Shown here piece by piece: positions 1 through 22,048 of a stretch of 64,000 bases of DNA. Position numbers and translations under genes: made by a program. Within the stretch, counting starts at the first letter, position 1, and each line of letters opens with the position of its first letter. The stretch lies in NCBI GenBank assembly GCA_031256795.1, contig JAIRPW010000032.1:1-64000 (forward strand), written 5' to 3'. Source of the stretch: Zoogloeaceae bacterium. Its GTDB lineage: Bacteria > Pseudomonadota > Gammaproteobacteria > Burkholderiales > Rhodocyclaceae. Below the pieces are notes generated by a model. It had not been told where the DNA came from and did no database searches. It saw nothing but the letters and a program-made list of their open reading frames with translations.

Positions 1-2708
1 TTCGGCAAAGTGCTCTTAGCTAGGAATTTGCGCAACGATTCGCCATAGCCCGCCCGCATCCATTTGTTGGAAGTGATGAAACAAAGATGCGCCTTGTCAC
101 GAAGAAGTTGAAAACCGCGTTCGTAAAAAAGCGTATAAATATCGCCGGTGCGCTCAAAGGTTTTGAAGTCGGCATTTTTGTAGACATTGGCAAGTTCACC
201 TCCGTTGTTTTGAAGCTGAATGTAAGGCGGATTGCCCATCACAATGTCAAACCCCTCTTTAATGCCAAACATCCATTCCGTATCAAAAAAAGCAGAAGCC
301 GCGTTTTGGTCGTAAGGGTCCCAATGGGCGAGCTTTTCAGCTTCTTCGGCAAAAGCGATATTGGCGGATTTTGAAAGTTCCGCTTGAATGCCTTGTTCCA
401 AAGCGCGAATTTGGGCGTCCAGTTTTTCACGTTTGGGCTGATTGACGTCCACCCGCAATGGTAATCCGGCAGGGCGCGTGATATTGCCAAACATATCCTT
501 TTCTTCCGCCGTGCCCGCGACTTCTTCCCATTTTTCGGCGGACACGGCTTTGCGTTCCTGTTCGGCTTTAACGAGCTGATCTTGGTAAGTTTCAAGCCGG
601 TGTTTGTCAGGCAAAGGCGCAAGCGTTAAAAGATGCGCTTGAAGTTGTTTGCGGGTATTTTCATCGTCTTTGCGGAGACTCTTTTTCTGCGCTGTCCTGC
701 GGGCCGAAAAATGCGCGTGACGGATACGGCGAAGCTCTTCTTTTAGCTCGCGGGTTTTATCATCGTCCTCGTCCGCCCAATTTTTTGGCTTATGGATACC
801 GACAAGGGTATTCGCGGCCACAAAATTGGTTTCCAAATTGGGAAGCGGCAGAATGGCGTTATCCGCCTGTTCGTTATCCGCCTGTTTATTATCCTGTTCA
901 CAAACAAGCGAGATAAAAAAGCGAAGTTTGGTAATCTGTACCGCGATAGGCTGGATGTCCGAACCGTAAAGGCAGTTTTCGATAAGGTGCAGTTTGCGGA
1001 CATAATCCGGGTGCTCACGAGTTTCATCAAAAACGCGCCCCACGGCGGCAAGTTTTTGTTCCATGCTTTCGCCGCCGTCCGTATGAGTGCCAAGGGAAGA
1101 TTCACAGTCCTCCATCGCTTTTTTTATGGCAAGTGTTTTTAGTTGCGCATTCTTAGGGTCAACTTGCGCGAGGATATGCACCATCTGCTGGAGCATCCCC
1201 ATTGGGAACGCGCCGGAGCCGCAGGCCGGATCAAAAATCTTTGCGTTGAAAAGCGCCTCCGCAATCTCTTTGCGCTGTGCGTCAGTAAGGCGGTTTTCAA
1301 CGCCGGCATAGCTGGTGAGATTGCGGATTTCCTCTTCCGGCGCATTCTCAACGCGGGTTTTCAGATACGCAATAAGGCTTTCATCCACCATGTATTGAAC
1401 AATTTCTCGCGGCGTATAAAAAGAGCCGGTTTCCTTGCGGGCGGTATTGCGCGTTTCCGGGTTGAAGGACGCAAGCAGGTTTTCAAAAATCTGGCCGAGT
1501 AATTCCGGGTCAAGCGCAACAGCTTTATCAAAAGGAGTGTTTTCCTCCACCGTGAAATTGTAGGCGTTGAGAATGTGGAAAAGCCCGTGCGTTTTGACAG
1601 AAGATTTTTTGCGGTCACTGTCAAAAAAAACGGAAAGGTCAACCGTTTGCTCTTTACCAAAAAAAAGCTCGTCAGGCACGGCAAGACGGGGTTCATTTTC
1701 AGTTAGGTTTGAAAAGCAATCCACCCGAAGAGGAATATCTGTTTCAGTGTTTTTATCAAGATTTTCAAAAAGTCCGCCGTTCAGAAAGGGAATCTCGTGG
1801 CAGGTTTCGCAAAATTGTTGAGCGGCGTCTTTTTTGAAAAACCGCTTGTAACGATAAGCCGTGACACCTTTTTGCCCATATTTCTGAAATTCGCGAGGAC
1901 TTTCTTCCGGGTCAAGATTCAATGTGGCGAAAAAAAGGTTTTGGAGAATCGCCTTGTAATACGTGCTGCCTGTAGCGTCCGTATTATTGAGCCAGTCTTT
2001 CACAGTTTTTTCATCAAAAAGTTTAGCGGGAACAATGCCTTTTTGTTTCAAAAACCAAACAAAAATAAGCCTCGTAATCAGGCGGATGGTCGGCGTAGCG
2101 TTGCGGGTTTCTTTGTTTTTGAGTTCGGGAAGATCATCAGGCCAAACAACTTTTGTCAACGCCCAAAAATACCAGTCCTGTAATTCTGAATAAAATTGTT
2201 TGGAAAGCGCCTCAACAGAAAAGGCTTCATCAAGATTGGATTGAGAAATTCCGGCAGATTGAAGTTTGGCAAAACGCTCCACAGGTGTGCGGTAATTTTG
2301 CGCCTTGTCGCCAAACACATAGGTAAAGCGTCGCGGGGCAGTCTCCGCGCCTTTGATGTCGCAAATATAGGAAAAACGCCATTCGGCGGAGCCGTCTTGG
2401 ACAAAGACGGCAATGGCGGCATCGAAACCGTGGCCGCGCAGGAAGCGGTCGGCGAGAGCGCGCAGCCCGGATTTTCGGCGGAGGATAGAACCGCGTGTGA
2501 TGTCAAAGCGGAATAGCCCGACGCGGTAGCTGTCCGCCGTTTCAAATTCGCCAAGCAAGAATCCGGCTGCGTCGTCTTTTTTTTCCAGCAGGTCCGGTAT
2601 TGCGTAGAGTTTGCCCGCGCCAAAAAAAACATGAAGAAATTCCGTCCACGCGGCATCGTCAAACGGCGCTTGAAAAAGGGACTGGAGTTGTTCGCGGGTG
2701 TAGGTCAT
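1..2708 (-). CDS. Eco57I-like class I N6-adenine DNA methyltransferase (partial, runs off left edge)
   Basis: Manual reverse-strand translation from ATG at 2708 (MTYTREQLQSLFQAPFDDAAWTEFL...) stays open to position 3. Contains SAM motif FDPACGSGAFPMG (about 1200-1240) and catalytic motif FDIVMGNPPY (about 220-250). Not in the ORF track because its stop lies outside the window. Confidence 0.85.
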   Translation of the reverse strand, partial: MTYTREQLQSLFQAPFDDAAWTEFLHVFFGAGKLYAIPDLLEKKDDAAGFLLGEFETADSYRVGLFRFDITRGSILRRKSGLRALADRFLRGHGFDAAIAVFVQDGSAEWRFSYICDIKGAETAPRRFTYVFGDKAQNYRTPVERFAKLQSAGISQSNLDEAFSVEALSKQFYSELQDWYFWALTKVVWPDDLPELKNKETRNATPTIRLITRLIFVWFLKQKGIVPAKLFDEKTVKDWLNNTDATGSTYYKAILQNLFFATLNLDPEESPREFQKYGQKGVTAYRYKRFFKKDAAQQFCETCHEIPFLNGGLFENLDKNTETDIPLRVDCFSNLTENEPRLAVPDELFFGKEQTVDLSVFFDSDRKKSSVKTHGLFHILNAYNFTVEENTPFDKAVALDPELLGQIFENLLASFNPETRNTARKETGSFYTPREIVQYMVDESLIAYLKTRVENAPEEEIRNLTSYAGVENRLTDAQRKEIAEALFNAKIFDPACGSGAFPMGMLQQMVHILAQVDPKNAQLKTLAIKKAMEDCESSLGTHTDGGESMEQKLAAVGRVFDETREHPDYVRKLHLIENCLYGSDIQPIAVQITKLRFFISLVCEQDNKQADNEQADNAILPLPNLETNFVAANTLVGIHKPKNWADEDDDKTRELKEELRRIRHAHFSARRTAQKKSLRKDDENTRKQLQAHLLTLAPLPDKHRLETYQDQLVKAEQERKAVSAEKWEEVAGTAEEKDMFGNITRPAGLPLRVDVNQPKREKLDAQIRALEQGIQAELSKSANIAFAEEAEKLAHWDPYDQNAASAFFDTEWMFGIKEGFDIVMGNPPYIQLQNNGGELANVYKNADFKTFERTGDIYTLFYERGFQLLRDKAHLCFITSNKWMRAGYGESLRKFLAKSTLP

Positions 2709-2719
2709 TTGGAATTCCC

Positions 2720-5700
2720 TTAGAGGGTAGCGGGAACGTCCCGCTCCAGTTCAATGCCGTTTCGGGAGCGGGACGCTACCGTAAACGTTTCGGAAACAAC
2801 AATCACGGTATCGGCGGCTTCGCGTTCTGTTTCTGGAACGGCCACAACTTTGCGCGGGGCAAATTCATCGTAGAGCGCGGAGAGAATGCCGGGGAGCGCG
2901 GCAATTTGTGCCTCGGTGGGGTGCGCGGCAAATTCGCCTAATTTTTTGACAGCGGCATTAAGTTTTTTGGGAAGCTGGGTGTGAATGCCCGCGTCAAGGT
3001 CGTTGATAAGCGCATCAATTTGGGGCGCAAGCTGCGCTGGAAGCTGACCGCCCTTCACATAGCGCAAAGAGGCGCGGAGCACACTGGCTGCGGCGCGGGA
3101 GGCACGGTCTTTTGAAGCGGGTGCAACCGTGACGGCTTGGTTGCCGTGGAGGCCGCCGCCGGTATCGCCGTCTTGAAACGCGGCCAGCGCGGCGGCAATG
3201 TCTTTGTAATGGGTTTTGCTTGCGAACGAAAATGGAAGCGACTTTTCATTCACTTCGGCGCGTAGATATTTAACGGCTTCAAGGAAAGAGACAGGTTCCG
3301 GCTTAGCATTGCTCACGATATAAAACTGGATGCGCCCTGCCGCTTTGATGAAAGCTAGGGAAAAATTTCCCTCTTGTTTTGTGACCGAATTTGAAACCTC
3401 TTTTCGGATACAGCGAACCTTTACCGGAAAGTTTTTGATTCTTTCGTAATCCTCGCGGTGTTTGTGGAAAAACTCGCGGACTTCACGCAGTAACAAAAGA
3501 GATTCATCAACATCGTCTTTTACCTCACTGTTGAAAAGCTCAAATTGTTTGACAATTTCCTCATGAGAGAAAATTTGCACGTCCTCGCCTAGTGCGGATT
3601 GAAAACCCTGCATTTTAATGAGCGCGTTTTCGTATAAACTAATTTCTCTGTTCCCTTGATCCGACGGATAAAACATAAAATTGTGAATGGCAGCCGCCGT
3701 GGATCCAATACGATTTACACGCCCAATGCGCTGCATCAGGTGAGCAACATTCCACGGAGTATCATAATGAATAACCACATTGGAACGATGAAGGTTAATC
3801 CCTTCAGAAAGAACGTCAGTCGAAAGAAGGATGTTGTATTGATCGCCCTGTTTGTCTGCGGCAATGTTGGCGTCAAAAGACGTGCGGATTTTATCTTTCA
3901 GACGGTTGCGGTTTTCAGAATAAACACAAAGAATATCTTCGCGGTTGAGTTTTGTTTTTAGTTGCTCTTCCAAATACTTAGCAGTGTCCAGACTTTCTGA
4001 AAATACTACAAGTTTTCCAGAAGGGTTAATTGTTTTATGCAAAAGACGTTTTTGAAGCGCGTCAATAAATACATCTAGTTTTGGGTCAACATTAACGGTT
4101 TCCCATTGTTTTTCCAACGCTTCAAATACATCCTTGTCTGCACGAAGCATTGTTATAAAATCCGGGTTAAAGTCCTCTGCTTTGTATAAAAAGCCCTCTT
4201 TTTCATACCCTCGCTCATCAATGAGTTTGTCGATAATCGCGTCAAATTCCATTCCCTTGTCGAGCCAATTGCGAATATCAATATTCCGCACAATAAACAC
4301 TTTATCTGCCGCAAACATTGCCAGTATCTGCTTAATGCCACGTAGCGCGTTAGCAATGGAACAACGAAATGCAGGGAAAGAGCTTTCCAGCCGCTTCACC
4401 ATCAGTGTGCGATAAAGTTTATGGAGCGCCGCCGCGACTTGGTCTGCCTTTTCATAGCGATTTTTGAATTCTGGTTTAAGAAATTCAATCGCACGATAAC
4501 GAGCGTAATAGATAGGCACAGCATCAGATGGGAGAGGGTTTCCAAAAGCCTCAAGCATATCTTGATAGTTCGCGTCGCCCGTCAAAAACCAAAGCGTTTT
4601 TAATAGGAGAATTTCAAGTTCCGGCATGAGTTTGTAATTGAGAATTTCCGGTTTTGAGACTATTGGAAATACAATGCCTTGCTTATCTAAGTCCGCCTTA
4701 TAATCCGTAGATTTTAGAATATTTTGACGTGTCCGCCGTACAGTAATCCGTTCCAGTAAATCGCGGCGGATTTTTTCATAAATTAAGTCGATTTTTTGGA
4801 TGTCAAATTTTTCTGAATCGTGACGTCTGCGCATGGCATCTTTATAACGCTTGGAAAGCGGCGCAAAAAACTCGTTGATGTTTTGGATATTTTCTATTGT
4901 TGGGCGGGCAGAGTCCTGAAAGAGCAGAATTTGCCAGCGAATGTCGTCCGGCTCGTTGTTGATGGCTGTCGCGGAGAGAAGCATTACTTTTTTGCGCGAG
5001 CCGTGCGTCTCACCAAGATTGCCGTGATGTCTACGCGGCGCTTTGCAGATTTTTTGCAAATCATTAAAACGCTCACTATTGTTATGGCGAAAATTGTGTG
5101 ATTCATCCACAATAATAAGGTCAAATTCTTCTTTGGCGTGATAGTGCCCCCTTTCTTCCAAGAGTTTGGGAAGGCTGCCGTTGCTGATAAATTGCGTGTG
5201 GCGTGTCAGCGAAAAACTTTTGAAAGTTTCTTTCCAGTTTTCCTCTACCGCAATCGGATAAACAACAAGAATTTTTGTCTGCCGCCCGTTTGCCTCAACA
5301 AAGCGGCGGGCAATCATGGCGGCCACCACGGTTTTGCCCAAACCGACCACATCGGCGAGAAAAAAACCGTTATGGCGGCAAAGCATTTGATAGCCCTGAA
5401 TCACGGCGTCGCGCTGATAAGAAAAATCCTTGAAACCCTCTGGCAACGAAAGAGAAAAAGAATCTTCCACTTGTTCGCCAAAGGTATCAATTAGCACCTT
5501 CATATAGAGTTCAAAGGGCGTTGGCTGAATACCGAGGTGCGTTTTAGCAAAAGGCGCGGCAATGTCATCCGGTGAAAGCGGGACACCTTCTTCCCAAAGT
5601 TTATCGAATTCGCTTTTACAATAAGCAACGTCGTTATAGTCTTTCATGGCGACGTTGAGTTCATATTGCGGCGCACGGATAAGCCCGAGACCGGCGTCAG

Positions 5701-6178
5701 TCAAATTGGACGAACCCATGATGACCCAGCCATCTGAATGTTCCGTATGGTTTTCGGGGAGGCATAAATAAAATTTGGCGTGAAGCGTTTTTGAGGCATG
5801 AATACGCATTTCGAGACGCCCGCATTTCACGTCATCAATGAACTGAAGAATGCCGTGTTCAATTTCATTGGCGTAATTGGCGTCGCGGATGTCGTCAATA
5901 AACGATTGGGTATAAATTTGTTTGGCTTGTTCCGGGTTGCCGAACCAGAGTTCTGATTTATCGTGCCGACGAAAAACGTTGTCGATGTTAATGCCGACAA
6001 GAATTTGTATTTTCCGAACATTCCCCAGTTTCTCGCGTAGTTTGAAATAGCCGGAGGAACGGAAATATCCTGATACCGCGAGAAACGAATGAAATGCCGC
6101 GCCCATGCCTTCGGCGATTCCGGAAAATTTGGCGAAAAGCGTATTGTCGTCAGAATTATTAAAGAATTTGCTGTTCAT
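2720..6178 (-). CDS. PLD-nuclease-like/SNF2-type superfamily 2 helicase
   Basis: 1152 aa. N-terminal HKD-like HAKFYL...GSSNLTDAGL, Walker A-like DVVGLGKT, DESH box, helicase C-terminal motif LMQRIGRVNRIGS. Ends about 11 bp before the methyltransferase start. Confidence 0.85.
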   Translation of the reverse strand: MNSKFFNNSDDNTLFAKFSGIAEGMGAAFHSFLAVSGYFRSSGYFKLREKLGNVRKIQILVGINIDNVFRRHDKSELWFGNPEQAKQIYTQSFIDDIRDANYANEIEHGILQFIDDVKCGRLEMRIHASKTLHAKFYLCLPENHTEHSDGWVIMGSSNLTDAGLGLIRAPQYELNVAMKDYNDVAYCKSEFDKLWEEGVPLSPDDIAAPFAKTHLGIQPTPFELYMKVLIDTFGEQVEDSFSLSLPEGFKDFSYQRDAVIQGYQMLCRHNGFFLADVVGLGKTVVAAMIARRFVEANGRQTKILVVYPIAVEENWKETFKSFSLTRHTQFISNGSLPKLLEERGHYHAKEEFDLIIVDESHNFRHNNSERFNDLQKICKAPRRHHGNLGETHGSRKKVMLLSATAINNEPDDIRWQILLFQDSARPTIENIQNINEFFAPLSKRYKDAMRRRHDSEKFDIQKIDLIYEKIRRDLLERITVRRTRQNILKSTDYKADLDKQGIVFPIVSKPEILNYKLMPELEILLLKTLWFLTGDANYQDMLEAFGNPLPSDAVPIYYARYRAIEFLKPEFKNRYEKADQVAAALHKLYRTLMVKRLESSFPAFRCSIANALRGIKQILAMFAADKVFIVRNIDIRNWLDKGMEFDAIIDKLIDERGYEKEGFLYKAEDFNPDFITMLRADKDVFEALEKQWETVNVDPKLDVFIDALQKRLLHKTINPSGKLVVFSESLDTAKYLEEQLKTKLNREDILCVYSENRNRLKDKIRTSFDANIAADKQGDQYNILLSTDVLSEGINLHRSNVVIHYDTPWNVAHLMQRIGRVNRIGSTAAAIHNFMFYPSDQGNREISLYENALIKMQGFQSALGEDVQIFSHEEIVKQFELFNSEVKDDVDESLLLLREVREFFHKHREDYERIKNFPVKVRCIRKEVSNSVTKQEGNFSLAFIKAAGRIQFYIVSNAKPEPVSFLEAVKYLRAEVNEKSLPFSFASKTHYKDIAAALAAFQDGDTGGGLHGNQAVTVAPASKDRASRAAASVLRASLRYVKGGQLPAQLAPQIDALINDLDAGIHTQLPKKLNAAVKKLGEFAAHPTEAQIAALPGILSALYDEFAPRKVVAVPETEREAADTVIVVSETFTVASRSRNGIELERDVPATL
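2726..2780. repeat. REP-like inverted repeat inside the helicase 3' end
   Basis: Left GGTAGCGGGAACGTCCCGCTCC; right GGAGCGGGACGCTACC, whose reverse complement is GGTAGCGTCCCGCTCC. Confidence 0.6.
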
Positions 6179-8647: not shown

Positions 8648-9345
8648 TCAAGGCTTGTTTTTACCGTTTCCCCGCCGCGTTTCCGCCATATCCAGTTCGC
8701 GCAGATGGCGTAGTTTTTCCCCGATTTTCCCTTCCAGTCCGCGCGGCGTGGGGCGATACCAATTCGGTTCTTGCATTCCTTCGGGAAGATAGCTTTCGCC
8801 CGCCGCGTAAGCCTCGGGTTCGTCGTGCGCGTAGCGGTAGGTTTTCCCGTATCCCAGCGTTTTCATGAGTTTTGTTGGCGCGTTGCGCAGATGTTCGGGG
8901 ACGGGGCGGCTTTTATCCTGCGCGACAAAGGCGCGCGCCTGATTCCAGGCCATGTAGCCCGCGTTGCTCTTCGGCGCGACCGCCAGATACAGAACGGCTT
9001 CGGCCAGCGCCAGCTCGCCTTCCGGAGTTCCCAGACGCTCATAGGTTTCCGCCGCCGCGAGCGCGATCTGCGCCGCGCGCGGATCGGCCAAACCAATATC
9101 CTCCCAGGCCATGCGCAGAACGCGGCGCGCGAGATAACGGGGATCCGCGCCGCCGTCCAGCATTCTGGAAAACCAGTACAGCGCCGCGTCCGGACTGGAG
9201 CCGCGCACGGACTTGTGCAGGGCGGAAATTTGATCGTAAAAAGCGTCGCCGCCCTTGTCGAAACGGCGGGGGCTTTCCGTGAGCGCGGCGGCGGCGAACG
9301 CCTCGTCTATTTCCGTAAGTCCGGCGCTTTGCGCGGCGACCGTTA
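8648..9345 (-). pseudogene. rarA: 3' fragment of native rarA (replication-associated recombination protein A)
   Basis: TVAAQSAGLTEIDEAFAAAALTESPRRFDKGGDAFYDQISALHKSVRGSSPDAALYWFSRMLDGGADPRYLARR... is colinear with the C-terminal half of the intact copy at 12612-13919. Confidence 0.9.
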
Positions 9346-9349
9346 GTAT

Positions 9350-10148
9350 TAGTCTCAATGTTGGCTATCAGATATTGCAAGGCAACATCACCAACAGGCA
9401 GCAGCTTTGTGATTACTTGGAGAATTTTGGAGAAATTACCAGAATCAATGAAAAATTCATTTCATTGAAGGTCAATGAATCACAGAAGGCTTTCCGCTTG
9501 AAGGGGCCTGCTTATGAAGATGGAGCAGACTTCAAGCAGTTAAAAGATGAATTTCTCACCAAAGGGGCTGACTACAGAAAGCAGCTTAATGATGCTGACT
9601 TTCAGAAAGTTCGTGACACTCTCAAAAGATTGACTGATTCAAGAAGAGATTTTCATCAGAAGCTGATTGCCAAGCCAATGTCTGACAGAAGCAATAGCAA
9701 TCGCATATATAGACCCAAAACCACTGTCAAGCAGCCTACCCCTTCTAAAGAGGTTCAGCAGCCGCAGAAGGTTAAGGAAGCACCTGCCCAAGTCCAATCT
9801 ATTGCACAGCCTCAGCAGCCTTCTATGTCTCGTATAGAGCCCACCAGCAGCAGCAAGCAGCAGTCACCACCAACCAACACACAGCAGGCCAAAGAAGCAC
9901 CTTCTTCAACCTCTATGCCGTCAATGGGCAGCAGTGCAGATAGTTCAGTTGGTGGACTTCGTTCTCAACTGGCTGATCTCATGAGCCAGATTGCCAATGC
10001 GAGGAATCCAGCCAAAGCAGCCGCATTGAAAGCCAGAGCCACACAGATTGAAAATCAGATTGGTGTAGCAGTAGCAGCCGAAAGAATCAGGAAGCTCAAA
10101 GAATCAGAACGATTCAATGGCACGAGTGGCAAGAAGATGAAACTCTGA
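9350..10148 (+). pseudogene. 3' remnant of a MobA-like plasmid relaxase/mobilization gene
   Basis: ITNRQQLCDYLENFGEITRINEKFISLKVNESQKAFRLKGPAYED resembles the post-catalytic region of Mob relaxases, followed by a Q/S/P-rich linker and coiled C-terminus. The ORF-track start at 9255 lies in antisense rarA and is artefactual. Confidence 0.55.
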
Positions 10149-10167
10149 TCCTTCCTACTTCATTTTC

Positions 10168-10184
10168 GTGAATGGATCATTCAC
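10168..10184. terminator. Hairpin downstream of the relaxase remnant
   Basis: TTTTcGTGAATG-GAT-CATTCACaAAAA, 7 bp perfect stem with A/T tracts on both sides. Confidence 0.5.
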
Positions 10185-10203
10185 AAAAATAAAGCAGGCC
10201 CAT

Positions 10204-10227
10204 GAAAAAAGCACCCGAAGGTGCTTT
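10204..10227 (-). terminator. Rho-independent terminator of the island rarA-M-R operon
   Basis: Minus strand AAAGCACC-TTCG-GGTGCTTTTTTC just after the REase stop. Confidence 0.75.
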
Positions 10228-10242
10228 CCATGCGACTCAATT

Positions 10243-11187
10243 TCAGTTGTAAGGCCCCAAAAATCTAGAGCCATTGAAGTGAATCATGTGAGTTGGTGCA
10301 TCTGCAATCCACACCTCAGTTTCCCATGCAATCACACTGGAATACTTCGCATAGGTGCGGGAATCTGGGAATGCCGACACATACACCAATCCTGCTGTGC
10401 AGTTCCTGAACAACGAAGTCAATTCACCATATCTCTTATGGTCGACAGGCCCATGACTGGTGACTGATTCAATCAGGAATAGCCAATTGTTGGTAGTGCT
10501 GTAGATGACCACATCAGGCAATTTCCCGTGGTTGTCCAGTGTCACACCTAGCGAAGCAAGGAAAGCCACATCAAAGAATCCGTGCTTGTCTCCAGTGTCA
10601 CCGACATAGACCAAGCGACCACCAGGCACATACCTGGCTCCAAAATCCTGCACGATGTCTTTGATTAGCTGGGAGTGGGCACCTGCTGAAAGCTGAATGG
10701 TTTGACCGTTGCCAAGCTCCAATGGAATCATCTCCATTTCTCGTGCTCTGGCATACATCTGAGCCAGAGTTTGCCGCTGCTGCAAGTAGCCTTGAAGCAT
10801 CGCCTGGTACTGTGCAGTGCCATAGGTGCGGAGCACACCCAAAAGAGTAGGCTCTATCTGATAAGCAGCATGAGGGCTATTCACTGCCCTATCTGGCTTG
10901 TCAGGGTTGTAGAGGCATATTCCTGCATCAACGAACTGGTGCATGGATTGGCGACGGAAAGTTTCGCGGGTGTTTGGTGCATAGTCCTTTCCATAGTGCT
11001 GCCGCGACCAGTCCATGATCGGAGTAATACCAACAAGCGGATTGCCAGCTTGGCTCCATTGCTTGTTCGGTGTCATGTCCAGCAAACACAGCAAGCAGAG
11101 GGCTGTCCGCTCATTCAATTGCTGCCTTGGCATTCCCAAATGAACAAGAATTTCAGAAGCTTGTTGTAATTTTTGATCCACACTCAT
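10243..11187 (-). CDS. BsuBI/PstI-type type II restriction endonuclease
   Basis: 314 aa. VYVGDTGDKHGFFDVAFLASLGVTLDNHGKLPDVVIYSTTNNWLFLIESVTSHGPVDHKR matches the family core as remembered; size close to that of PstI/BsuBI. Start overlaps the MTase stop (ATGA). Confidence 0.85.
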   Translation of the reverse strand: MSVDQKLQQASEILVHLGMPRQQLNERTALCLLCLLDMTPNKQWSQAGNPLVGITPIMDWSRQHYGKDYAPNTRETFRRQSMHQFVDAGICLYNPDKPDRAVNSPHAAYQIEPTLLGVLRTYGTAQYQAMLQGYLQQRQTLAQMYARAREMEMIPLELGNGQTIQLSAGAHSQLIKDIVQDFGARYVPGGRLVYVGDTGDKHGFFDVAFLASLGVTLDNHGKLPDVVIYSTTNNWLFLIESVTSHGPVDHKRYGELTSLFRNCTAGLVYVSAFPDSRTYAKYSSVIAWETEVWIADAPTHMIHFNGSRFLGPYN

Positions 11188-12611
11188 TCACTCACTCCTA
11201 ATAGTTCATCAATTTTCTGTTGGCTCATTGTGCTTTGATATTTCTTGCCAAGTCTCTGCAAGGTTGCCATCGTGGGATATTTCATGTTCTTCAAGTCGGT
11301 GGCATTGACTTGAGTGTGTCCAGAAAATACCCTGAAGTAACCATCAAGAAGAGTGGAGTTCAAGAAGCAAGCCAAGCCCATAGCTGTAACTTCATCAAAG
11401 CCATGCTTCTTCACATGGAACACATTCCAGCAGTTATCAAAGCCAATCCACTTCTTGTCAATTTCAGCAGGATTGATGATGTAGGCAACGACTCGCCGCT
11501 TTTCTTCTTTGGCTGAAAACCTTCTGACAATCACATAGAAGCCACTGTTTGGCATGAGCCATTTTTGAGAGTCAGGAGCAACCCTGATGGCATTGGGCTT
11601 CTTGTGTTCCTTTGGATACTGAAACTGCCTATCTACAAAGTGATGCGGGTAAAGCAATGGAACTGAATCAGCGGTTGGATTCTTTTCCAAATACTCAGTC
11701 ATCCGATGGGACACAACAGGGCCAGTGCTAACACCTATACCAAGGTCAGAAAGAGAGGCTGAAAACAGTGGGTTGTTCTCGTTGACTTCTTCACCAGTTG
11801 GAATGTGAATGAAGACTTCCGCATCATTGGGTTTGACCACTTCAGCAAAGGCTACCGATTTCGTTTGGTAGTCATGGAATTCATGATCGGTGGATTGAGA
11901 AATTTCAACCGCACCTTGCTTCTTACCCTTGGTGACTTTAAAAATAATGTTCTCTTGCAGAACTTCATCATCCTTGAAAGCTTTATTTCGGCTTTCAAAG
12001 ACATGGATGTGTTCAATTGAACACTCCTTGAGCATCATTTCTCTGAAGGGCTTGTAATAAGGTCCATTGCAGAAGGAACGAGGAATGATGATGACAATCT
12101 GCCCGCCTTTCTCCATCAACAAAATGCTGAGTGCAAAAAAAGCTGTGTAGAGATTGACTGTTTCAACCCCTACTTTTCTGAGTTCTTGCCTATGCTCTGA
12201 ACTGCTGCTGATTTTCTTGTAAGGCGGGTTGATGATGGCATGTGTGTATCGCTCACCACTGCCCGAACGAATATTTTCGACCGCACCAAAAATGAAATCT
12301 TGAGCATGGATGGAGAAATTTACTCCAACCATTTGCATGTTCTTCTCTAGCTGCTCTTGCATGATTGGATCAATTTCCCACTGATCCACCAATGCAACCT
12401 TCTTCAGCACCTTGATTGCAGAGATTGAAAGCGACCCAATGCCAGCCCCACAGTCAAGGAGCTTTGCATTTTTGGTGTTCTTATCAAAGAGACTTGCCAT
12501 GTAGTCAGCAATGACCGTGGCAGTCATGAACTGACCAAGCTTAGACTTGTTTTTCTGGTCAAGCCTACCGTTGACCTCAAGCCGAACTTTATCAAGTGTT
12601 TCAGTATTCAT
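11184..12611 (-). CDS. N6-adenine DNA methyltransferase of the BsuBI/PstI-type R-M system
   Basis: 475 aa. Motif I LLDCGAGIGSLSISA, motif IV INPPYKKI. ATG directly follows the rarA TAA. Confidence 0.88.
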   Translation of the reverse strand: MNTETLDKVRLEVNGRLDQKNKSKLGQFMTATVIADYMASLFDKNTKNAKLLDCGAGIGSLSISAIKVLKKVALVDQWEIDPIMQEQLEKNMQMVGVNFSIHAQDFIFGAVENIRSGSGERYTHAIINPPYKKISSSSEHRQELRKVGVETVNLYTAFFALSILLMEKGGQIVIIIPRSFCNGPYYKPFREMMLKECSIEHIHVFESRNKAFKDDEVLQENIIFKVTKGKKQGAVEISQSTDHEFHDYQTKSVAFAEVVKPNDAEVFIHIPTGEEVNENNPLFSASLSDLGIGVSTGPVVSHRMTEYLEKNPTADSVPLLYPHHFVDRQFQYPKEHKKPNAIRVAPDSQKWLMPNSGFYVIVRRFSAKEEKRRVVAYIINPAEIDKKWIGFDNCWNVFHVKKHGFDEVTAMGLACFLNSTLLDGYFRVFSGHTQVNATDLKNMKYPTMATLQRLGKKYQSTMSQQKIDELLGVSE

Positions 12612-13919
12612 TTATTCTTTCCCCGCTTCTTCATCCCACTTCTTCAGCAGAGCGAGCTTTTCACCAATCTTGATTTCCAACCCTCTAGGAGCTGGCTGAT
12701 ACCAACCTGGCTCTTCTATGCCGTCAGGGAGATAATTTTCCCCAGCAGCATAAGCATTGGGTTCATCATGAGCATATCGGTATTCATGCCCATAGCCCAG
12801 TTCCTTCATCAGCTTTGTTGGAGCATTGCGAAGGTGAACAGGAACTTCCCTAGACTTATCCTGCTTCACAAAGGCACGAGCTTGGTTGTATGCCATATAT
12901 CCAGCATTGCTCTTGGCAGCTACAGCAAGATAGATAACCGCTTGACCAAGGGCTAGTTCACCTTCAGGACTTCCCAGCCGCTCAAAGGTCAAGGCTGCAT
13001 CGTTGGCTATCTGCATGGCTCTTGGGTCAGCAAGGCCAATGTCTTCCCAAGCCATGCGAACAATTCTTCTGGATAGATACCTTGGATCGGCACCACCATC
13101 CAGCATTCTTGTTAGCCAGTAAAGGGCTGCATCAGGGTTGGAGCCACGAACGGACTTGTGCAAAGCTGAAATCTGGTCATAGAAATTATCACCACCTTTG
13201 TCAAATCTTCTGCTGTTCAGGGTTAGTGCATTCTGGATGAATTCACTATCAACCTTCTGAACACCAGCAGCACCAGCAGCGGTTTTGCATTGCTCCAGCA
13301 GGTTCAAGAACCTTCTTGCATCACCGTCTGCATAGCCAATGATTGTTTCAACAGCCAAGTCTTCAAACTGCAAGTCACCAAGGGCACCTTCTTCTTGCAC
13401 TCGCTTCAAGAGCAGCTTCAATTCTTCTTCTGTCAGTGACTTCAGCACATAGACCTGAGCACGAGACAGCAGAGCCGAGTTCACTTCAAAAGAAGGGTTC
13501 TCAGTGGTGGCACCAATGAAGGTGACTAGGCCACTTTCTGCATAGGGAAGAAGCGCATCTTGTTGGGACTTATTGAACCTGTGAATTTCATCCACGAACA
13601 AGATAGTGTGCTTGCCCATAGACAGGTTCTGCTGTGCCTGCTCCATAGCAGCACGGATGTCTTTGACACCAGAGAACACCGCAGACAGTGCAATGAACTC
13701 GCACTTGAAGGCTGTGGCTGTGAGGCGTGCCAAGGTGGTCTTGCCTACACCTGGTGGCCCCCAGAAGATCATGGAGTGGGGCTTGCCTGACTGGAAGGCT
13801 AGTCTCAAAGGCTTACCTTCACCCAACAAGTGAGACTGACCAATGACCTCATCCAGAGTCTTGGGCCGCAGTGCTTCAGCCAGTGGTGCAGTAGGCTCTT
13901 GTGCGAACAAATCAGCCAT
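12612..13919 (-). CDS. rarA: RarA/MgsA AAA+ ATPase, island-borne intact copy
   Basis: 435 aa. FWGPPGVGKTTLA Walker A, ILFVDEIHRFNKSQQDALLP Walker B, full C-terminal clamp-loader-like region through GLEIKIGEKLALLKKW. Confidence 0.95.
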   Translation of the reverse strand: MADLFAQEPTAPLAEALRPKTLDEVIGQSHLLGEGKPLRLAFQSGKPHSMIFWGPPGVGKTTLARLTATAFKCEFIALSAVFSGVKDIRAAMEQAQQNLSMGKHTILFVDEIHRFNKSQQDALLPYAESGLVTFIGATTENPSFEVNSALLSRAQVYVLKSLTEEELKLLLKRVQEEGALGDLQFEDLAVETIIGYADGDARRFLNLLEQCKTAAGAAGVQKVDSEFIQNALTLNSRRFDKGGDNFYDQISALHKSVRGSNPDAALYWLTRMLDGGADPRYLSRRIVRMAWEDIGLADPRAMQIANDAALTFERLGSPEGELALGQAVIYLAVAAKSNAGYMAYNQARAFVKQDKSREVPVHLRNAPTKLMKELGYGHEYRYAHDEPNAYAAGENYLPDGIEEPGWYQPAPRGLEIKIGEKLALLKKWDEEAGKE

Positions 13920-14370
13920 GCTTCACCCCCTCAGAACAATGGGGAAGCCCAAAAATATGCACAATGACTCTTCTAAGTCTTTGATTTATAAAGTGCTTGA
14001 CAGCTTTGTTGAACCGGTGCGCCTCATCCACAAAAAGCAGGGTGCGGCGTCCGCGCGCCTGATTGTCTTCCGCCTGACGCACCGCCTCGCGGATTTCCTT
14101 GACGCCGGAAAAAACGGCGGAAAGCGCGAGGAATTCGCAGTCAAAGCCCCGCGCCATGAGCCGCGCCAGCGTGGTTTTGCCCACGCCCGGCGGCCCCCAG
14201 AAAATCATGGAATGCGGCTGCCGCGCCGCGAACGCGAGATACAGCGGCTTTCCCTCCCCCAGCAGATGACGCTGTCCCACGACTTCGTCCAGCGTGACCG
14301 GGCGCAGCCGTTCCGCCAGCGGCGCGCCCGCGCGGAGGTTTGCTTCAGCGGAAAAAAGGTCGGCGGGCAT
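13912..14370 (-). pseudogene. rarA: 5' fragment of native rarA
   Basis: MPADLFSAEANLRAGAPLAERLRPVTLDEVVGQRHLLGEGKPL...FWGPPGVGKTTLARL...LLFVDEAHRFNKA, then non-homologous VKHFINQRLRRVIVHIFGLPHCSEGVKHG*. Residual ORF of 152 aa. Confidence 0.92.
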
Positions 14371-20545: not shown

Positions 20546-22048
20546 GTGGAACTGCTCTCCAACCTTTCCCTTGGATTCGACGCCGTTCTGACGTTTCAGA
20601 ATCTATGGTACTGCTTTCTGGGCGCGCTTCTCGGAACGCTGATTGGCGTTTTGCCGGGCCTGGGTCCCGTGGCCACGATCGCCATGCTTTTGCCGGTCAC
20701 CTATGGATTGCCGCCCCTTTCCGCGCTCATCATGCTGGCGGGAATTTATTACGGCGCGCAATACGGCGGTTCAACTACGGCGATCTTGGTGAATCTGCCC
20801 GGAGAGTCCTCTTCGGTTGTCACCTGCCTTGACGGATACGCGATGGCGCGGCAGGGGCGCGCCGGCGCGGCGCTCGGCATTGCCGCCCTGGGTTCTTTTT
20901 TCGCCGGTACGGCAGCGACTCTGCTGATTGCCGCGGCCGCCTCGCCTCTGGCCGAATTCGCGCTTCGCTTTGGCCCCGCCGAATATTTTTCCCTGATGTT
21001 TCTGGGATTGATTACCGCCGTCGCGCTGGCGCACGGCGACTTTTTCAAGGCAATCGCCATGGTCGCGCTGGGGCTGACGCTCGGCCTCGTCGGCATTGAC
21101 GTGAATTCCGGAGTGGAACGCTTTACCTTCGGGCTTCCAGAGTTATCCGACGGCGTCAGCTTCGTGGCTTTGTCCATGGGATTATTCGGCGTCGCGGAAA
21201 TTCTTGCCAATTTGGAACTGCGGGAAAAACGCGAGGTATTTACCCAAAATATTGGCTCCCTGTTACCAAGCCGACAGGATTTACGCGCCGCTTTCAAACC
21301 CGTCCTGCGGGGAACGCTTCTCGGCTCGGCGCTGGGAATTTTGCCGGGCGGCGGCGCGGTGCTTTCTTCCTTTACCTCCTATACCCTGGAAAAGCGTCTG
21401 GCGAAAGACCCGTCCCGTTTTGGCAAGGGCGCGATTGAGGGCTTGGCCGGGCCAGAATCCGCCAACAACGCGGGCGCGCAGACTTCCTTTATCCCGCTCC
21501 TGGTCATGGGGCTGCCCTCAAACGCGGTCATGGCCCTGATGGTCGGGGCGATGATGATTCACGGCGTCGTACCGGGGCCGCAAGTTATGACGGAACGCCC
21601 CGAACTGTTTTGGGGTCTCATCGCCAGCATGTGGCTTGGCAATTTTTTCCTTGTACTCCTGAATCTGCCGCTGATTGGAATTTGGGTTCGTCTCCTGAAA
21701 GTGCCTTATCGGCTACTGTATCCCGTCGTCCTCGTATTTTGCTGCGTCGGGGTCTATAGCGTCAGCAACAGCGTTTTTGACGTGGGCCTGGCTTTGTTTT
21801 TTGGCTTTGTCGGCTACTTGTTTCTCAAGCTCGGCTGCGAACCCGCGCCGCTTCTCCTCGGCTTCGTACTCGGCCCGATGATGGAAGAAAACCTGCGCCG
21901 CGCAATGCTTTTGGCGCGCGGCGACGCCAGCGTGTTTTTCACCCGCCCCATCAGCTGCACGCTGCTCGTGCTCTGCATCGCGCTCATTCTTCTCCTCGCC
22001 TGGCCGCAAGCGCGCAAGGCGCGGGAGACGGCATTTCAGGAAGGCTGA
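20546..22048 (+). CDS. Tripartite tricarboxylate transporter large membrane subunit TctA family
   Basis: GTG start. LLGTLIGVLPGLGPVATIAMLLPVTYGLPPLSALIMLAGIYYGAQYGGSTTAILVNLPGES; GLAGPESANNAGAQTSFIPLLVMGLPSN. Confidence 0.95.
   Translation: MELLSNLSLGFDAVLTFQNLWYCFLGALLGTLIGVLPGLGPVATIAMLLPVTYGLPPLSALIMLAGIYYGAQYGGSTTAILVNLPGESSSVVTCLDGYAMARQGRAGAALGIAALGSFFAGTAATLLIAAAASPLAEFALRFGPAEYFSLMFLGLITAVALAHGDFFKAIAMVALGLTLGLVGIDVNSGVERFTFGLPELSDGVSFVALSMGLFGVAEILANLELREKREVFTQNIGSLLPSRQDLRAAFKPVLRGTLLGSALGILPGGGAVLSSFTSYTLEKRLAKDPSRFGKGAIEGLAGPESANNAGAQTSFIPLLVMGLPSNAVMALMVGAMMIHGVVPGPQVMTERPELFWGLIASMWLGNFFLVLLNLPLIGIWVRLLKVPYRLLYPVVLVFCCVGVYSVSNSVFDVGLALFFGFVGYLFLKLGCEPAPLLLGFVLGPMMEENLRRAMLLARGDASVFFTRPISCTLLVLCIALILLLAWPQARKARETAFQEG

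What the first reader, a model, noticed from the sequence alone, without database searches (positions are those of the whole stretch)
1..6178. PLD-helicase plus Eco57I-like methylase: two-gene defence module at the left edge
A 1152-aa protein with an N-terminal HKD-type phospholipase-D nuclease fold and SNF2-like helicase is followed within about 11 bp by a large N6-adenine methylase that continues out of the window. PLD nucleases, helicases and methylases occur in systems such as DISARM, but DUF1998/drmB is not seen here. The helicase would be the effector with nuclease and motor in one chain.
Basis: partly seen in the sequence, partly recalled or inferred. Interest (0 to 1): 0.6.

Follow-up and report, generated by a model that had tools for sequence, protein, structure and literature searches.

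The report
Two-gene restriction system: nuclease-motor plus methylase
This bacterial chromosome carries the start of a two-gene defence module, a DNA-cutting motor protein next to a DNA-marking enzyme; the pairing recurs across bacteria and archaea and very probably destroys unmarked foreign DNA, so it is a recognisable but little-described variant of restriction-modification.

Summary
A 1152-aa HKD(PLD)-SNF2 helicase (2720-6178, minus strand) is followed after 11 bp by an Eco57I-like N6-adenine methylase whose first 902 residues run to base 1. Base 1 is also the contig end, and the methylase's C-terminal target-recognition part is not in the 99%-complete assembly.

DISARM is excluded: DrmD is matched only through its helicase core, and the genome has no DUF1998/MZB protein. 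BREX-related 'Type-2 BR' is not met: no DUF499 or DUF3780 in the genome, and that helicase family is only a distant outgroup.

The pairing is a recurrent module. In loci from plasmids, viral contigs and genomes, 44 of 44 helicases paired with an Eco57I-like (38) or Type ISP-like (6) methylase keep the HKD site. In a clade paired with DUF4391 + Type III Mod + Res, 0 of 55 keep it, a single loss on the tree. The nuclease therefore looks needed only where no Res nuclease exists. The methylase has no nuclease motif and folds most like BREX BrxX. Five of 38 relatives carry an invertible extra recognition domain.

Best reading: a two-gene ATP-dependent restriction-modification system (methylase recognises and protects; HKD motor cleaves). 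New variant of a known kind.

The parts
2720..6178 (-). HKD(PLD)-SNF2/SF2 helicase, 1152 aa; proposed restriction effector (nuclease + translocase)
5579..6178 (-). N-terminal HKD nuclease domain (residues ~1-200)
   Evidence: PLDc_2 at 117-195; HKD signature in alignment
5774..5782 (-). HxK catalytic motif (H133-A-K135)
   Evidence: invariant in 30 relatives outside the Type III-paired clade; absent in the Type III-paired clade
5705..5716 (-). GSSN motif (residues 155-158)
5330..5347 (-). Walker A of the motor, VGLGKT (278-283)
5096..5107 (-). Walker B / DExH box, DESH (358-361)
3719..3733 (-). helicase motif VI, QRxGR (816-820)
2709..2719 (-). 11-bp gap between helicase stop and methylase start
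3..2708 (-). Eco57I/BrxX-like N6-adenine methyltransferase, first 902 residues; target-recognition domain missing past the contig end
1410..1427 (-). methylase motif GSFYTP (428-433)
1206..1232 (-). SAM-binding motif I, DPACGSGAF (493-501)
222..233 (-). catalytic NPPY motif (826-829)

Best explanation
It is a two-gene, ATP-dependent restriction-modification system. The large methylase, whose missing C-terminus would carry the target-recognition domain, binds a specific site and methylates adenine on host DNA. On unmethylated incoming DNA it licenses the HKD-SNF2 protein, which moves along DNA by ATP hydrolysis and cuts with a dimeric HKD (PLD-type) active site. Shown: anatomy, intact motifs, recurrent pairing, and HKD conservation exactly where no Type III Res nuclease is present. 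Inferred: complex formation, site-specific methylation, translocation, cleavage and phage defence. Not known: whether this copy is complete, because the contig ends inside the methylase.
For: Pairing: in 399 phylum genomes the methylase has close relatives in 3, each beside this helicase. On plasmids the methylase relatives examined all neighbour it, in Bacteroidota, Cyanobacteria, Lactobacillales and archaea. HKD residues are intact in 44 of 44 helicases paired with Eco57I-like (38) or ISP-like (6) methylases and in 0 of 55 paired with DUF4391 + Type III Mod/Res (41 broken, 14 not alignable there), while motor motifs stay intact in both. On a tree built without the HKD region this is one loss, at the switch to the Type III partner. 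The methylase N-terminus has no conserved acidic/lysine nuclease motif, so the only nuclease seen is the partner's. Methylase model (pLDDT 78.5) is closest to BrxX/PglX, then CamA and MmeI; helicase model (79.1) is closest to RapA/Swi2-Snf2 motors. Several relatives have a C-terminal TaqI-like specificity domain. The locus has lower GC (0.44-0.50) than most of the window, and no relative of the helicase at E<=1e-50 occurs in 100 related genomes, as expected of an acquired defence gene. SauUSI (PLD + SF2 motor + TRD in one chain) is a biochemically proven precedent for such an effector (PMC7913695).
Against: No experiment is known to me for any member found. The HKD/Type III pattern is one evolutionary event, so it supports the reading but is not a replicated test. 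Some methylase homologues have no HKD helicase nearby (L150 and lower-scoring ones). Some loci carry extra genes between the two (SLFN/AlbA-2, Fic, KilA-N), so additional components are possible. The window's methylase is truncated by the contig end.
Confidence: 0.75

Rival explanations
1. A BREX-related (DUF499-centred, Type-2 BR) system: HKD-Swi2/Snf2 helicase, N6-methylase, DUF499 ATPase and DUF3780, of which only two genes are visible at the contig edge.
For: Published Type-2 BR systems have the same effector architecture (HKD fused to Swi2/Snf2) and an N6-methylase (PMC12839542). The methylase fold is closest to BrxX.
Against: No DUF499 in the genome and no DUF3780. A DUF3780-bearing locus (L050) has a helicase of PADLOC's PLD_Helicase family (925 bits); ours scores 66 there. 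It is a distant outgroup in the tree, and neither methylase nor ATPase of L050 matches ours by BLASTP. No DUF499 was found among the partner genes scanned in two-gene loci.
Confidence: 0.06
2. The effector is a Type IV-like enzyme that attacks modified DNA on its own (like SauUSI), and the methylase neighbour acts separately.
For: SauUSI has the same PLD + SF2 motor layout (PMC7913695).
Against: The helicase is beside an adenine methylase in nearly every locus examined, with three partner types. Type IV enzymes do not need a cognate methylase.
Confidence: 0.08
3. A BREX-like system that blocks phage DNA replication or stops the cell without cleaving DNA; the HKD domain only binds DNA or signals.
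For: BrxX-like methylase; some relatives carry SLFN/AlbA-2 or Fic genes in the same operon.
Against: Catalytic HKD residues are invariant where no Res exists and degenerate where Res exists. A merely structural domain would not be expected to show that pattern.
Confidence: 0.08
4. In this genome the locus is a decaying remnant: the methylase lacks its recognition domain, so nothing works.
For: C-terminal third absent from a 99%-complete assembly. A short contig (C46) begins with a decayed serine-recombinase fragment resembling those of relatives, though linkage to this locus is unproven.
Against: Both reading frames are open with all motifs. The break lies exactly at the contig end, about 47 codons before the point where the nearest methylase-bearing relative (L058) has ~100-bp inverted repeats, which would also break a short-read assembly.
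Confidence: 0.15
5. A DISARM variant.
For: SNF2 core resembles DrmD and the methylase weakly resembles DrmMI.
Against: DrmD equivalog score 136 against cut-off 610; no DUF1998/MZB protein in the genome.
Confidence: 0.01

Closest known systems
Type-2 DUF499-centred BREX-related (BR) systems (PMC12839542)
   Same: HKD nuclease fused to the N-terminus of a Swi2/Snf2 helicase, with an N6-adenine methylase; proposed R-M-like action
   Different: No DUF499 ATPase or DUF3780; helicase belongs to another, distant subfamily; methylase not detectably similar by BLASTP to that of the one BR-type locus compared (L050)
PADLOC model C3a139 'HKD+Snf2' (PDLC01075)
   Same: Best PADLOC hit of the helicase, spanning most of the protein (131 bits)
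   Different: The model fits the DUF4391/Type III-paired clade far better (448 bits for L032), whose HKD site is degenerate
SauUSI (Type IV, PMC7913695)
   Same: PLD nuclease + SF2 translocase in one chain; dimeric HKD site in SauUSI
   Different: SauUSI carries its own TRD for 5mC and has no methylase; here recognition is presumably in the methylase
CglI / NgoAVII (PMC4267653, PMC5737866)
   Same: ATP-dependent R-M with a PLD-family nuclease and a helicase-like ATPase
   Different: There nuclease (with B3 TRD) and ATPase (with Z1) are separate chains, plus a separate methyltransferase
Type IIG / Type ISP enzymes
   Same: Large gamma-type N6-methylase with C-terminal TRD; in ISP also a translocase
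   Different: Those fuse nuclease and methylase in one chain; here nuclease and motor are on the partner and the methylase has no nuclease motif
BREX PglX/BrxX
   Same: Closest solved fold to the methylase
   Different: No BREX core genes named in the annotated relatives' loci

Membership tests
DISARM | DUF1998 (DrmB) / DrmA helicase | tested here: not met
   PF09369 (MZB, formerly DUF1998) absent from the whole genome; rings in 8 of 14 control genomes
DISARM | DrmD equivalog score | tested here: not met
   136.5 bits against a cut-off of 610
Type-2 BR (DUF499-centred) | HKD + Swi2/Snf2 helicase with N6-methylase | tested here: met
Type-2 BR (DUF499-centred) | DUF499 ATPase | tested here: not met
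   PF04465 absent from own genome; the gene could only hide in an assembly gap
Type-2 BR (DUF499-centred) | DUF3780 | tested here: not met
   PF12635 absent from own genome
Type-2 BR (DUF499-centred) | helicase of the PLD_Helicase subfamily | tested here: not met
   66 bits against 925 for the DUF3780-locus helicase; outgroup in tree
Type IIG R-M | nuclease and methylase in one polypeptide | tested here: not met
   no conserved acidic/lysine motif in the methylase N-terminus across 22 sequences
Type IIG R-M | gamma N6-methylase with C-terminal TRD | tested here: inconclusive
   methylase motifs met; TRD lies beyond the contig end, present in relatives
Type III R-M | Mod + Res pair | tested here: not met
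   partner is an Eco57I-like methylase and no Res is adjacent on the visible side; Mod/Res pairing is confined to another clade of the helicase family
Two-gene HKD-SNF2 + BrxX/IIG-like methylase module (this report) | adjacency of the two genes with intact HKD and methylase motifs | tested here: met
Two-gene HKD-SNF2 + BrxX/IIG-like methylase module (this report) | m6A motif and restriction of unmethylated DNA | not testable with these tools
   needs methylome and phage or plasmid challenge

The most novel reading that the evidence does not exclude
The HKD-SNF2 protein is a portable restriction motor that plugs into three methylase kinds (BrxX/IIG-like, Type ISP-like, Type III). When it moved to a Type III Mod-Res pair with DUF4391 its nuclease died while its motor was kept, giving an undescribed four-gene Type III system with an extra nuclease-dead translocase. 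The two-gene form can also switch specificity by DNA inversion.
Probability: 0.45. Interest if true: 0.6.

Novelty: new variant of a known kind. Interest (0 to 1): 0.45.

Why it matters
If right, restriction here is split unusually: all recognition and marking in one chain, all movement and cutting in the other. The same motor recurs with three methylase types, and its nuclease decays where another nuclease is supplied, so simple point mutants would test which part of an ATP-dependent restriction system cuts. No paper found in the held library describes the pair as a system, although the parts are individually annotated in databases. Specificity switching by DNA inversion in some relatives links it to phase-variable epigenetics.

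Tried and rejected
DISARM and Type-2 BR were tested and rejected. A hidden PD-(D/E)xK nuclease in the methylase N-terminus: the predicted fold has a beta-beta-alpha-beta order but no conserved catalytic residues. Search for the missing methylase C-terminus in the same genome: nothing; the one TaqI_C hit is internal to another contig (C16). Contig C46 as the other side of the gap: suggestive only (decayed invertase at its start), no sequence overlap with the window's edge. The single genome-contig scan with one protein gave one extra relative (L003); the first viral-contig scans with single proteins gave none, alignments gave 80 and 44 loci.

Full report
OBSERVATION. Both genes are present on the minus strand as described: a 1152-aa helicase at 2720-6178 and, 11 bp on, a methylase open to the window edge (902 residues at 3-2708). 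The window is contig 35 from base 1 of a 2.1-Mb, 51-contig, 99%-complete genome, so the methylase is cut by an assembly gap, not just by the window. A search with a complete relative (L019) found no C-terminal piece elsewhere in the genome; the only TaqI-type recognition domain in the assembly is internal to another contig, and the first 260 bases of the window occur nowhere else.

ANATOMY. The helicase has an N-terminal PLD/HKD domain (Pfam PLDc_2, residues 117-195) and a SNF2/SF2 motor. In an alignment of 30 sequences at 21-55% identity to it, from outside the Type III-paired clade, H133, K135, G155, S156, N158 and E173 are invariant, as are the key Walker A, Walker B and motif VI residues. 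The methylase has FYTP, DPACGSGAF and NPPY motifs intact. An AlphaFold2 model of the methylase (mean pLDDT 78.5) is closest to BREX BrxX/PglX, then CamA and MmeI; the helicase model (79.1) is closest to RapA and eukaryotic Swi2/Snf2 motors. No acidic/lysine nuclease motif is conserved in the methylase N-terminus, so it does not carry the nuclease of a standard Type IIG enzyme.

DISTRIBUTION AND LINKAGE. At E<=1e-50 the helicase is absent from 100 relatives; 13 of 399 genomes of the phylum, own genome included, have one at E<=1e-30. The methylase has close relatives in only 3 of 399, and all three (own genome, G127, G171) sit beside the helicase. On plasmids the pair occurs in Parabacteroides, Prevotella, Planktothrix, Nostoc, Lactococcus, Lactiplantibacillus, Thermus/Meiothermus and archaea, sometimes with other genes between. 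Scans of IMG/VR with alignments gave 80 helicase and 44 methylase loci, with many contigs in common. Some methylase homologues lack the helicase (L150 and lower scorers).

THE NUCLEASE PATTERN. Relatives of the helicase have three partner types: Eco57I/BrxX-like methylase, Type ISP-like methylase, or DUF4391 + Type III Mod + Res. After removing duplicates, HKD residues are intact in 38/38 and 6/6 of the first two and in 0/55 of the third (41 broken, 14 too divergent to align there); the motor motifs are intact throughout, apart from one D358E in a Type III-paired protein. In a tree of 30 proteins the Type III-paired helicases form one clade, supported 100/98, nested among Eco57I-paired ones. 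In a tree of 105 built without the HKD region, partner type needs 2 changes and HKD state 1. This is one evolutionary event, so it is strong circumstantial evidence, not a replicated test. The simplest account is that HKD is the cutting site of the two-gene system and became dispensable when Res supplied a nuclease.

SPECIFICITY SWITCHING. In 5 of 38 Eco57I-paired loci (L017, L052, L058, L064, L065) a second recognition domain lies on the opposite strand beside a serine recombinase. In L058, the nearest methylase-bearing relative (about 50% identical in both proteins), inverted repeats of 101-111 bp at 95-100% join the methylase and the spare domain. The window's contig ends about 47 codons upstream of the position where L058's repeats begin. 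An invertible end would explain the assembly break, but this is inference. Contig C46 of the same genome starts with a decayed recombinase fragment of the same family; linkage is unproven.

MECHANISM. Most likely: the methylase recognises its site and methylates adenine; on unmethylated DNA it recruits or licenses the helicase, which translocates with ATP and cuts with a dimeric HKD site. Precedent for such an effector: SauUSI, a PLD nuclease + SF2 translocase (PMC7913695); for ATP-dependent R-M with PLD nucleases: CglI/NgoAVII (PMC4267653, PMC5737866). Shown: anatomy, linkage, conservation. Inferred: every biochemical step.

COMPARISON. DISARM is excluded. The published Type-2 BREX-related systems share the effector architecture (PMC12839542), but DUF499 and DUF3780 are absent and their helicase is a distant outgroup. 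Works like an R-M/BR effector pair; not a member of BR, DISARM, Type IIG or Type III. Within the held open-access library I found no paper that describes this pair, nor DUF4391 in a defence context; subscription papers and REBASE were not searchable.

VERDICT. Observation confirmed; two-gene defence reading supported; DISARM link rejected. New variant of a known kind, interest 0.45.

Noticed in passing
window 8690-14364: The chromosomal rarA/mgsA gene is split (3' part 8690-9340, 5' part 14002-14364, both minus strand, codons ~119-212 lost). Between the halves sits a low-GC ~4.6-kb element with a PstI/BsuBI-type R-M pair (REase 10243-11187, methylase 11184-12611) and a complete foreign rarA (12612-13919) that can replace the broken one.
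   Followed up: partly
window 9255-10148 (+): ORF matching the MbeA plasmid mobilisation relaxase family (33.7 bits, below the family cut-off) at the other end of that element, suggesting plasmid origin; nearest DNA relatives of the R-M pair are Acinetobacter plasmids at ~71%.
   Followed up: partly
L032, L035, L037, L042, L025 and relatives: A four-gene cassette, HKD-dead SNF2 helicase + DUF4391 + Type III Mod + Res, recurs in genomes, plasmids and phages; I found no description of it.
   Followed up: partly
L058:13726-15504, L017, L052, L064, L065: Invertible spare recognition domains with a serine recombinase next to the methylase: likely phase-variable specificity.
   Followed up: partly
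L192 (own genome, contig C46:1-661): Contig start with what looks like the end of a RhuM-like gene (my reading of the sequence, not searched) and a decayed serine recombinase, followed by metH; could be the far side of the assembly gap.
   Followed up: partly
L016:12274-13665, L059:8120-9511, L019:7439-8980: SLFN/AlbA_2 + HATPase_c_4 proteins lie in or next to the pair in several Bacteroidota-type loci, a possible third component or regulator.
   Followed up: no
window 20546-22048: Strong AT skew (-0.315) in the 20-22 kb bin coincides with a hydrophobic TctA-like transporter ORF next to a Bug-type receptor ORF (names from my reading of the sequences); ordinary.
   Followed up: yes
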